DNA of 64,000 bases. It comes from Halobacteriovoraceae bacterium (lineage in GTDB: Bacteria > Bdellovibrionota > Bacteriovoracia > Bacteriovoracales > Bacteriovoracaceae). The notes beneath the pieces are model-generated. The model made no database searches. It had not been told where the DNA came from and saw only the letters and a program-made list of their open reading frames with translations. Shown here piece after piece: positions 21,490 to 24,897 of this stretch; position 1 is the first letter of the stretch, and each line of letters begins with the position of its first letter. Location of the stretch: positions 119,019-183,018 of the forward strand of contig PASN01000009.1 in assembly GCA_002711995.1 (NCBI GenBank). Direction: 5' to 3'. Both the position numbers and the translations under genes were made by a program.

Positions 21490-22221
21490 ATGGCCAGGCA
21501 CATTACTAGTTTTGATTTCCCTGAGTTAAAGGTCATCAATGGCAAATATAGGATAATTTCCAAACTCGGCGGAGGATGGGAAGGAGAAGTCTATAAGGTT
21601 GAGGAGATATCCACCGGGATTATTAGGGCCGCAAAGTTCTTTTTGCCAATTAGAAATAAAAACAATGTGAACGCCAGAAGGTATGCCAAAAAACTTCATA
21701 AGCTTAGAAGTTGCTCAATCCTAATTCAGTACTTTACTCAAGAGACAATGATGTTTAAGGACGAGAAGGTAACTTACCTTATTTCAGACTATGTTGAAGG
21801 TGAAACCTTAACCGTATTCTTGAAAAACTTCAGAGGAAGCAAACTTCCTCCATATCAGGCGCTTCATCTTTTGCACGCTTTAGTTAGAGGTCTTGAAAAA
21901 ATTCATGCCTTTCGCGAGTACCATGGCGATTTGCACTCGGACAATGTTATCATTCAAAGATATGGACTTGGATTCAAGGTCAAGATATTGGATTTATTTC
22001 ACTGGGGCACGCCTAAAAGCCAAGACTTTAAAGATGATTTAGTCGACGTGATCAGACTATTCTACGATGTTCTTGGTGGACCTAAAACTTACAAGGACAT
22101 GCCCCCAGAGGTAAAAGAAATTGTTTGTGGCCTAAAGAAGGGAATCATAACTTCCAGGTTTAAAAACATGTCTCAGCTAAGGATACACCTAGAGAACATG
22201 GCATGGAGTGTTTATAAATGA
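21490..22221 (+). CDS. serine/threonine protein kinase-like protein
   Basis: A 243-residue compact kinase domain with no TM segment or extra domain. The Gly loop GGGWEGEVY is at about 27-35, the ATP-anchoring Lys in AAKF (Lys49), the catalytic loop HGDLHSDN at 145-152 and the metal site DLF at 168-170 in place of DFG. HGDLHxxN is more like aminoglycoside kinases and ABC1 proteins than HRDLKxxN kinases, but the key Asp and Asn are present, so activity is likely. The stop overlaps the following phosphatase start by 4 bp, making an antagonist pair. Confidence 0.85.
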   Translation: MARHITSFDFPELKVINGKYRIISKLGGGWEGEVYKVEEISTGIIRAAKFFLPIRNKNNVNARRYAKKLHKLRSCSILIQYFTQETMMFKDEKVTYLISDYVEGETLTVFLKNFRGSKLPPYQALHLLHALVRGLEKIHAFREYHGDLHSDNVIIQRYGLGFKVKILDLFHWGTPKSQDFKDDLVDVIRLFYDVLGGPKTYKDMPPEVKEIVCGLKKGIITSRFKNMSQLRIHLENMAWSVYK

Positions 22222-23009
22222 GTATAAATATAGACTTCCACAATTCTGCGATGGAGAAACCTATTCCCTATAGCTTCAAAAATGGAAGCTTATGGCTCTA
22301 TCCCCATCCTAGCGAATGGGACAAGCCTATGGAGGATGCCATTGTAACAGTCTCTAGAGATGAGGAGCTAGTTGCAATTTTTCTTAGCGATGGAATGGGC
22401 GGCCACGCTGGAGGCGATAAGGCCGTAAAGGCCATGCATGAAAGCGTAAAGAAAGTATTTGAAAGCAAGAGTGCTTCCAAGAATGACAGAGAAAACGTTT
22501 TAGATGCGATTGAGCTTGCAGATAAAAAGGTAAAAGAATTAAAAACTGGCGCAGGAGCAACAATTGTCGCCTTTGAAATTGGTAAAGAATTTACTAGAAG
22601 CTATCATGCTGGAGACAGCGTAAGCTATGTTCTAGGTTCACGAGGTAAGATAAAATACCTTTCTATGGAGCACTCTCCGAGAGGCCATGCTCTGGAGTCC
22701 GGACTGGTGCATGAAGACAATGTCCACATCTACATTAAAGACGATCATGAAGTCTCCAATGGACTTGGATTTGAGCCCATGAGCTTAGAGGTAAGTCAAA
22801 AGATTGAACTTAACAACCAAGACCTCCTCTTTTTGTCCTCAGACAATATGCCTAAAAACTTCACAGAAGAAGAAATTGTATCCCTTATCTCCACAGGGGA
22901 ATTTGAGAAAAGGATGGATACATTTCACGAACAAATGAATGAGAAGATTAAGGACATAAAAAAGGACGACACAAGTGTCGCCCTATTTAAATATAATCTT
23001 GAAAAGTAA
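22218..23009 (+). CDS. PP2C-family protein phosphatase
   Basis: A 263-residue soluble metal-dependent phosphatase. MEDA (Asp40) and SDGMGGHAGG (58-66) supply the N-terminal metal ligands, GAGATIVAFE and YHAGDSVSYV the central motifs, and a C-terminal KKDDTSVALF carries the last Asp pair. It overlaps the kinase gene by 4 bp and probably reverses its phosphorylation. Placement after pckA and a dicarboxylate transporter suggests, without proving, a link to carbon metabolism. It ends directly against the convergent secreted-protein gene. Confidence 0.88.
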   Translation: MSINIDFHNSAMEKPIPYSFKNGSLWLYPHPSEWDKPMEDAIVTVSRDEELVAIFLSDGMGGHAGGDKAVKAMHESVKKVFESKSASKNDRENVLDAIELADKKVKELKTGAGATIVAFEIGKEFTRSYHAGDSVSYVLGSRGKIKYLSMEHSPRGHALESGLVHEDNVHIYIKDDHEVSNGLGFEPMSLEVSQKIELNNQDLLFLSSDNMPKNFTEEEIVSLISTGEFEKRMDTFHEQMNEKIKDIKKDDTSVALFKYNLEK

Positions 23010-23495
23010 TTAGTAACAAGGCTGGTAGCAAGAACGAGCGGCGTCTAAAAGCTGCTCTTTTCTGTCACAATTGAATTCATCCTTGCATGCAGTTTCAAGA
23101 CAAACAATATCAGATCTGTCGCAGGCCATCGCCACTTCTCTTGTGTCTTCCAAACTTCTTAAGTTTCGTTTTCCCACCTTTTTGGCAACAAAGTTTAAAC
23201 AATCCATATCTGTAAGCGCGCAAGACAGAGCAACTTTATTTAAATCGTCCCTGTTGTTTGTGTTATACCAAGGAAGGGTCTTAGCTAGTTTTTTAACACA
23301 TGCTCCACCGGGGTTTCCCGCACAGTGATATTTTATTTGTCTATTATGCTCGTCACTGCTGTATTGATATTTTGGAATTCTACTTTTAATTTCTTGCTCA
23401 CACTCAAGATTTGGTTTTACTCTACAGTGCCCTGGGTGAAACTGAGCGGTTGCAAGTAGCGACCAGCTAAAAAGCATCACAAAAAAATATTTCAT
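23010..23495 (-). CDS. secreted cysteine-rich hypothetical protein
   Basis: A 161-residue protein with a signal peptide ending near LLATAQF. ATG 23495 is chosen because AGGAGG lies 5 nt upstream; the upstream frame from 23519 is not protein-like. The mature part contains many evenly spaced Cys residues (HCRV, EC, HC, CV, SCAL, DC, CD, VC, TAC, NC, SCYQPCY), suggesting an array of disulfide-bonded helical hairpins. No family is recognised. Confidence 0.75.
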   Translation of the reverse strand: MKYFFVMLFSWSLLATAQFHPGHCRVKPNLECEQEIKSRIPKYQYSSDEHNRQIKYHCAGNPGGACVKKLAKTLPWYNTNNRDDLNKVALSCALTDMDCLNFVAKKVGKRNLRSLEDTREVAMACDRSDIVCLETACKDEFNCDRKEQLLDAARSCYQPCY

Positions 23496-23570
23496 ATGTC
23501 CTCCTAAAATCAGGTACAACTTACTGTTTTACGTTACCAAAGTCCATATACTCGGTAAAATCCATAAGGC

Positions 23571-24083
23571 CTAGGCTAAACCTATGTCCCTAAGAGACGA
23601 TGCAACTCGGTGCTTCGAGTCTCTTATGGGTTTTGAGAAGAGCCTTACAGTCTTAAGCCCTGCTCTCTGCGCGGCATCAAGAGAGTCTTCAGACGAAGAA
23701 ACGTACATAATTTCAGAGGGTTGAAGCTCTAAGCTCTTAGAGATACGCTCAAAAGCTTTAGGGTCATCTTCACTTCCCACAGAAGCGTCAAACTTGTTTT
23801 CAATTTGTTTATTGAATTCATCTGCTGAGTCAGTGGGAAAAGTTGCGACACCTAACCCGCTTTCTTTCCAATTTGCCAAGATTTCTTCAATTTCTGCACT
23901 TTTATCAAACCAATTATCTAAAATATCACTCAGCTCGTTTGGAGTTGCAACGTCAAAGCCCTCTTGTGTGTCAGCGATTTGAGCGAAATTTCCAGCCAAA
24001 AATTTATTCATTTCCGTTAAAATTGAAGGAAGATCATTAGAGTCCGTTTGGTCTTTTAAATTGAGCAATACATACTTAATCAC
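23571..24083 (-). CDS. MtnC-like HAD protein lacking the catalytic residues
   Basis: A 170-residue protein starting at GTG 24083 inside the end of mtnB. Its layout matches the enolase-phosphatase MtnC (HAD class). The first strand IKYVLLNLKDQTD aligns with the family's VTDIEGTT, but the nucleophile Asp is Asn and the second Asp position is Lys. The late motif IMYVSSSEDSLDAAQRAGLKTV aligns with LFLSD...ELDAA..AGM, with the metal-binding Asp lost. FDASVGSEDDPKAFERISKSL matches FDT..G.K....SY..I. It is therefore a pseudo-enzyme, perhaps a regulator or partner of MtnB. A reading start at 24209 lies wholly within mtnB and is rejected. Confidence 0.7.
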   Translation of the reverse strand: MIKYVLLNLKDQTDSNDLPSILTEMNKFLAGNFAQIADTQEGFDVATPNELSDILDNWFDKSAEIEEILANWKESGLGVATFPTDSADEFNKQIENKFDASVGSEDDPKAFERISKSLELQPSEIMYVSSSEDSLDAAQRAGLKTVRLFSKPIRDSKHRVASSLRDIGLA

Positions 24084-24711
24084 CGGATCCCCTATTTCTA
24101 TTAACGCTCGTTTCCAACAGCTCACATTCAAGAAGAAACTCAAAGGCCTCAACCTGTCTTTTGGCGCCATCAATTGAGTTAGACCAGGTATAAAGTCCAT
24201 GCCCTTCAACTAAGATTCCATGAATAAACCCATTCTTAGAGAAATAGTCTCCAAGCCACGAGCAAAATTCAGACATATCATCACTATTTGGAAATATGGG
24301 AAGAATCACTTCCTCATCATGTCGCCTGATACCATCAAACGCTTTGAGTATCTCGTAGTTGGAGAAAGAAATCTCTCCTTTATTTTTACATAGCCTGGAA
24401 ACTGTAGTGGAGGTAGGTGAATGCGTGTGCAAAACACAATTCACATCAGAAAACTGATTGTAAACACATGTGTGAATTAGGGTTTCAGGAGAGGACTTTT
24501 CACCTTGTGATTTAATAAGTCCCCCACTATTGTTAACTTGAACTAGGTCATTAACAGCGAACTTCGACTTATCCACGCCATTTCTTGATATAACAATATT
24601 TTTTGAAGTTTCTCTAAAGGAAAAATTTGAGCTGGTAGCTGGCGTCCAACCTTTGGAGCTAAAAAACTTTACGGCCTCTACCAAATGTTCTCGTTTCGTC
24701 TTGCCAAGCAT
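24076..24711 (-). CDS. mtnB: methylthioribulose-1-phosphate dehydratase
   Basis: A 211-residue class II aldolase-fold, zinc-dependent dehydratase of the methionine salvage pathway. Zinc ligands are His95 and His97 in HTHS and the later His in EGHGLYTW. Also visible are TSSNFSFR near the N terminus and the proton-donor region EKSSPETLIHT. No other salvage gene lies in the window except the overlapping MtnC-like pseudo-enzyme. The start ATG 24711 has AAAGGGG upstream, and a perfect 20-bp palindrome sits just before that. Confidence 0.85.
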   Translation of the reverse strand: MLGKTKREHLVEAVKFFSSKGWTPATSSNFSFRETSKNIVISRNGVDKSKFAVNDLVQVNNSGGLIKSQGEKSSPETLIHTCVYNQFSDVNCVLHTHSPTSTTVSRLCKNKGEISFSNYEILKAFDGIRRHDEEVILPIFPNSDDMSEFCSWLGDYFSKNGFIHGILVEGHGLYTWSNSIDGAKRQVEAFEFLLECELLETSVNRNRGSGD

Positions 24712-24724
24712 TGTGCCCCTTTCT

Positions 24725-24744
24725 GTTATAAAGGTCTTTATAAC
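24725..24744. promoter_or_regulatory. perfect palindrome upstream of mtnB, candidate operator
   Basis: GTTATAAAG (24725-24733) and CTTTATAAC (24736-24744) are exact inverted copies with a 2-bp spacer, ending 14 bp before the mtnB start. The tight spacer makes an RNA hairpin poor, so a dimeric repressor site is more likely. Confidence 0.5.
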
Positions 24745-24897
24745 GTTCCAGGGTTAGACAAGCAACTCAACGAGGCCTGTCACAAAGTTAAAGAATTAAG
24801 ATCTAATGAACGTCTAACTAAGAAGCTATAGCTACAAAGATAGGACAATACGGTATTAAGCAAGAAAAACCAGAGCGTTAAAATAGTTTTAGAAGAA

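What the first reader, a model, noticed from the sequence alone, without database searches (positions are those of the whole stretch)
23571..24711. Intact mtnB coupled to an MtnC-like protein without catalytic Asp residues
The second gene starts 8 bp inside mtnB and keeps the MtnC fold landmarks, but the HAD nucleophile (Asp to Asn), the second Asp (to Lys) and the metal Asp in the LSD motif (to Ser) are lost. A pseudo-phosphatase tied to a salvage dehydratase suggests a regulatory or structural role in a truncated methionine-salvage route.
Basis: partly seen in the sequence, partly recalled or inferred. Interest (0 to 1): 0.6.

Follow-up and report, generated by a model that had tools for sequence, protein, structure and literature searches.

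The report
Hollowed-out MtnC retained beside MtnB
In one Bacteriovoracaceae lineage most of the methionine-recycling pathway has been deleted, but one enzyme (MtnB) and a version of the next one (MtnC) stripped of its catalytic residues remain as an overlapping, still open gene pair, which suggests they were kept for a new job rather than being plain junk.

Summary
On the minus strand mtnB (24076-24711) overlaps by 8 bp a 170-codon GTG-start gene (23571-24083) descended from mtnC. That gene has lost HAD motifs I, II and IV, the motif III Lys, and 46 residues in three in-frame deletions. A congener (G001) has the same locus with mtnD and a normal mtnC. All 76 MtnC genes found beside mtnB in other genomes keep their motifs, and this is the only degenerate MtnC seen in 369 genomes of the phylum.

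The route is dismantled rather than truncated. mtnA is missing from its syntenic site, mtnD is gone, and no IF-2B-type isomerase, RuBisCO-like enolase or second MtnC was found. Of the upstream steps only MTA phosphorylase remains, so MtnB has no known substrate source.

"Intact mtnB" needs a caveat: metal and catalytic residues stay, but four near-invariant positions changed.

Neutral decay of the mtnC remnant looks unlikely: no stops (P about 0.005), only in-frame gaps, a preserved polar/hydrophobic pattern (beyond all 120 realigned simulations), and mtnB stayed constrained meanwhile. I favour a co-opted MtnB with a non-catalytic MtnC-derived partner. A slowly dying relic remains a serious rival, because only one genome shows this.

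The parts
24076..24711 (-). mtnB (methylthioribulose-1-phosphate dehydratase family, 211 aa); Zn ligands H95, H97, H171 and E76 kept
   Evidence: TIGR03328 above cut-off, PF00596, 73% identity to the congener's MtnB, column states
23571..24083 (-). Degenerate mtnC, GTG start, 170 aa, without HAD catalytic residues
   Evidence: TIGR01691 37 bits, below cut-off; syntenic with intact mtnC of G001; Foldseek best hit human E1
24076..24083 (-). 8-bp overlap of the two frames (GTGATTAA)
   Evidence: sequence
24088..24093 (-). AGGGGA, probable ribosome-binding site of the mtnC remnant, inside mtnB
   Evidence: sequence; function inferred
24048..24062 (-). Former HAD motif I: DxEGT now NLKDQ (residues 8-12)
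23826..23837 (-). Former motif II: SSGS now PTDS (residues 83-86)
23694..23699 (-). Former motif IV: SD now SS (residues 129-130)
24580..24582 (-). mtnB codon 44, S to N (Ser in 78 of 80 relatives)
24487..24489 (-). mtnB codon 75, A to P (Ala in 80 of 80), next to catalytic E76
24322..24324 (-). mtnB codon 130, T to R (Thr or Ser in 80 of 80)
24280..24282 (-). mtnB codon 144, Q to D (Gln in 80 of 80)
24712..24897 (.). Intergenic stretch at the place where the congener has mtnD; no mtnD trace
   Evidence: blastn/tblastn of the G001 locus, genome-wide ARD search

Best explanation
The ancestor had a normal mtnD-mtnB-mtnC operon plus unlinked mtnA and mtnP. In this lineage the methionine salvage pathway was dismantled: mtnA and mtnD are gone and mtnC lost its active site and part of its cap (shown). 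The mtnB frame stayed under protein-level constraint while mtnC changed heavily, and the mtnC remnant stayed open and kept its fold pattern (supported statistically). The mechanism I think most likely, which is inferred, is that MtnB still uses its zinc/Glu chemistry on another phosphorylated ketose, reflected in the altered near-invariant positions, and that the MtnC remnant is made by coupled translation as a non-catalytic partner that binds, stabilises or regulates MtnB.
For: Ancestral arrangement in the congener. mtnA absent at an empty syntenic site, mtnD absent, no IF-2B protein, no RuBisCO-like protein. All motifs lost here but kept in 76 other mtnB-linked MtnCs. No stop codon where 6-7 are expected under drift, P about 0.0005-0.007; gaps all in frame. 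Polar positions turned hydrophobic: 4.7%, against a minimum of 9.8% in 120 realigned neutral simulations. mtnB 73% identical to the congener where free drift over the same time would give about 47%. Four near-invariant MtnB positions changed while catalytic residues stayed. Overlap and RBS kept.
Against: One genome only. MtnB itself is accelerated (10 vs 2 lineage-specific changes against a background of 150 vs 124), which also fits early decay. Retained identity in the remnant is not concentrated in formerly conserved columns. The fold is confident only with the family alignment. No expression, interaction or activity data; no new substrate identified.
Confidence: 0.48

Rival explanations
1. 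Relic in decay: after loss of the pathway both genes are useless. mtnC lost function first, mtnA and mtnD were deleted cleanly, and mtnB plus the mtnC remnant happen to be still open.
For: The rest of the pathway is gone; MtnB is accelerated and changed at near-invariant positions; the remnant has lost the ancestral conservation profile; single genome.
Against: No stop or frameshift despite heavy change; preserved hydrophobic pattern; mtnB constrained during the time mtnC changed.
Confidence: 0.33
2. The remnant is a non-catalytic protein-binding protein with a role of its own, unrelated to MtnB, and is kept next to mtnB only by history.
For: Non-catalytic bacterial HAD proteins that bind protein partners are known (PcrP, PMC12632274); the remnant diverged far faster than mtnB.
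Against: Overlap and RBS inside mtnB keep the two co-translated; MtnB changed too.
Confidence: 0.14
3. A methionine salvage route still runs, with non-homologous replacements for MtnA, MtnC and MtnD.
For: An MTA-phosphorylase-like gene is still encoded (G000:C18:48719-49429) and MtnB keeps its catalytic residues.
Against: Three replacements would be needed; no IF-2B isomerase, ARD or RuBisCO-like protein found; MTA phosphorylase is useful alone for removing MTA.
Confidence: 0.05

Closest known systems
MtnC / enolase-phosphatase E1 (acireductone synthase, TIGR01691)
   Same: Descent, synteny, C-terminal Rossmann half, best structural match 1zs9/1yns
   Different: All catalytic motifs lost, 46 residues of cap and substrate segments deleted, 91 bits below the family cut-off
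MtnB (methylthioribulose-1-phosphate dehydratase, TIGR03328; human APIP)
   Same: Full length, Zn ligands and catalytic Glu, family cut-off passed
   Different: Four near-invariant positions changed; no upstream MtnA or downstream MtnD in the genome
Plant DEP1 (dehydratase-enolase-phosphatase complex 1)
   Same: Unites MtnB-type and MtnC-type parts in one protein, so physical association of the two is known
   Different: DEP1 works in the Yang cycle with an active phosphatase; here two genes and the phosphatase part is dead (PMC10514949)
PcrP, PA2803 subfamily of non-catalytic HAD proteins
   Same: Bacterial HAD-fold protein without catalysis
   Different: Another HAD subfamily (phosphonatase-like), a conserved subfamily rather than a single lineage; binds other partners (PMC12632274)

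Membership tests
MtnC / enolase-phosphatase (as an active enzyme) | HAD motif I DxEGT with nucleophile Asp | tested here: not met
   NLKDQ; 76 of 76 other mtnB-linked MtnCs keep it
MtnC / enolase-phosphatase (as an active enzyme) | Motif II SSGS, motif III Lys, motif IV SD | tested here: not met
   PTDS, Glu, SS
MtnC / enolase-phosphatase (as an active enzyme) | TIGR01691 score above the curated cut-off | tested here: not met
   37.2 bits against 128.1
MtnC lineage (by descent) | Homology and same locus as a true mtnC | tested here: met
   34% identity and synteny with G001
MtnC lineage (by descent) | Fold match to enolase-phosphatases | tested here: met
   1zs9 rank 1, E 9e-10, TM 0.58; the model depends on the alignment
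MtnB | TIGR03328 above cut-off, three Zn His and catalytic Glu | tested here: met
   192.5 bits against 137; H95, H97, H171, E76
MtnB | Near-invariant pocket positions S44, A75, T130, Q144 | tested here: not met
   N, P, R, D
MtnB | Dehydratase activity on MTRu-1-P | not testable with these tools
   needs an assay
Pseudoenzyme (non-catalytic but functional) | Catalytic motifs lost | tested here: met
Pseudoenzyme (non-catalytic but functional) | Protein maintained by selection | tested here: inconclusive
   Supported, but only one genome carries it

The most novel reading that the evidence does not exclude
Two consecutive enzymes of a dismantled pathway were rebuilt into one new two-component enzyme: MtnB with a changed pocket acts on a new sugar phosphate, and MtnC, emptied of its active site and cap, became its dedicated non-catalytic subunit.
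Probability: 0.3. Interest if true: 0.65.

Novelty: new variant of a known kind. Interest (0 to 1): 0.42.

Why it matters
If the pair is functional, it catches a pathway enzyme turning into a non-catalytic partner, with the ancestral state preserved in the same genus at the same locus, so the steps can be tested by a simple before-and-after comparison. It would also show that MtnB can have a role outside methionine salvage in bacteria. If it is a relic, it is a clear example of piecemeal loss of the pathway in Bacteriovoracaceae.

Tried and rejected
A second MtnC in the genome: the two weak hits are other HAD proteins. A second degenerate MtnC in the phylum: G036 gave a weak hit but it is a HAD of another kind. 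MTR kinase: none in G000 or its congeners. A DHAP-shunt reading (MtnA plus aldolase) was rejected because no IF-2B isomerase is present. Riboswitch or other Rfam RNA near the genes: none; promoter and terminator patterns at chance level. dN/dS was not used because synonymous sites are saturated; the upstream-gene control was misaligned and discarded. The MtnC tree places the remnant on a very long branch and is not used for its position. Enrichment of retained structural over catalytic columns was not significant (Fisher P 0.17). Structure prediction from the single sequence was uninformative.

Full report
Observation. The window lies on contig C6 of a 3.70-Mb genome (96.4% complete, 23 contigs) whose closest relatives are Bacteriovoracaceae; the nearest congener held is JAGSHJ010000226.1, isolate GY13CL_bin.22 (G001 = L043 = L045). 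On the minus strand mtnB spans 24076-24711 and a second frame starts at GTG 24083, eight bases inside it, and ends at 23571. AGGGGA (24088-24093) precedes the GTG, and the congener has a TAATG overlap at the same junction.

Origin of the second gene. The best profile match is the MtnC model TIGR01691 at 37 bits, cut-off 128. The congener carries, between the same neighbours, mtnD-mtnB-mtnC with a fully normal MtnC (DVEGTT, SSGS, LSD). The window protein shares 34% identity with it, including the stretch around residues 32-60 that other relatives do not share, so I take it as the same gene by descent. Relative to it the window gene lost 6, 28 and 12 residues, all in frame.

What is lost. Of 57 columns conserved at >=90% in the other MtnCs, 42 are changed or deleted here; no other sequence has more than 6. 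No phosphatase or enolase activity is expected (inference from established HAD chemistry).

How unusual. All MtnC genes found next to mtnB in 80 loci from public genomes (77 loci, one of them the congener) keep motifs I and II, and motif IV except in one that ends at the contig edge. Three of the 80 loci show no MtnC in reach. Among 369 genomes of the phylum 57 have an MtnC above the cut-off; the window gene is the only degenerate one seen, the other weak hit being another HAD.

State of the pathway. mtnA is absent. In G001 and G002 it sits between an AsmA-like gene and a Ppx/GppA gene; in this genome those two genes lie side by side inside a contig, so the loss is not an assembly gap. No IF-2B superfamily protein is found, no acireductone dioxygenase, no RuBisCO-like enolase, no second MtnC. 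An MTA-phosphorylase-like gene is kept (assignment by sequence features, from general knowledge). MtnB is the only class II aldolase found in the genome. So the pathway is dismantled, and MtnB has no known substrate source.

State of mtnB. It scores above the family cut-off and keeps the zinc histidines H95, H97, H171 and E76; the histidines matter in the human homologue (PMC3532061). But S44 (78/80 Ser), A75 (80/80), T130 (80/80 Thr or Ser) and Q144 (80/80) are changed to N, P, R and D. S44 and A75 lie in loops that in class II aldolases hold the substrate phosphate and the catalytic acid (family knowledge, from memory, not tested on a structure here). Lineage-specific changes are 10 against 2 in the congener with a background of 150 against 124 in a control region: a mild acceleration.

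Decay or retention. Synonymous sites are saturated between the two species, so dN/dS was not used. Codon position 2 differs at 38% of codons in mtnC and 15% in mtnB, while position 3 differs at 61-66% in both. If mtnC had drifted freely to this divergence, 6-7 stop codons would be expected and none is present (P about 0.0005 to 0.007). All gaps are in frame. Even with stops forbidden, neutral simulations turn 22-25% of family-polar positions hydrophobic; the real protein shows 4.7%, below all 120 simulations aligned in the same way (without realignment agrees). mtnB under the same free drift would be about 47% identical to its congener; it is 73%. These results favour selection for a folded protein and continued constraint on mtnB after MtnC lost its activity. 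They come from one sequence and simple substitution models, and the retained identity is not concentrated in formerly conserved columns, so slow decay is not excluded.

Structure. With 52 aligned MtnC rows the AlphaFold2 model has pLDDT 84.7 and pTM 0.75; its best PDB matches are human enolase-phosphatase E1 (1zs9, 1yns), E about 1e-9, TM-score 0.58, with a large overall rmsd of 11-12 A. The alignment carries the prediction; alone the sequence gives no model (pLDDT 40).

Mechanism. Most likely MtnB works on with its zinc chemistry on a different phosphorylated ketose, and the MtnC remnant, made by coupled translation, serves as a non-catalytic partner. Shown: motif loss, pathway loss, overlap. 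Supported: constraint on both frames. Inferred: interaction, new substrate. Known parallels for single steps are the plant DEP1 protein uniting both parts (PMC10514949) and the non-catalytic HAD protein PcrP (PMC12632274). A review of the pathway notes that the aldolase family of MtnB may evolve rapidly through side activities (PMC6302742).

Verdict. Observation confirmed, with added losses; interpretation partly supported: pseudo-phosphatase yes, truncated salvage route no. New variant of a known kind (a pseudoenzyme), single genome, moderate interest.

Noticed in passing
window 21490-22221 and 22218-23009 (+): A protein-kinase-like gene overlaps a PP2C-type phosphatase gene by 4 bp, probably a coupled kinase/phosphatase pair; the phosphatase is conserved at the same place in the congener (84% identity). 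Names from sequence reading, not from a family search.
   Followed up: no
window 23010-23519 (-): Small Cys-rich, possibly secreted protein conserved at the same place in the congener (54% identity), function unknown.
   Followed up: no
G002 (same genus), contig C8 (L142): G002 keeps mtnA but no mtnB, mtnC or mtnD was found; with 81% completeness this may be partial assembly or a different pattern of pathway loss in the genus.
   Followed up: partly
L041 (G027:C61): A class II aldolase gene lies directly upstream of mtnA, the arrangement expected for a DHAP-shunt-like salvage instead of the classical pathway.
   Followed up: no
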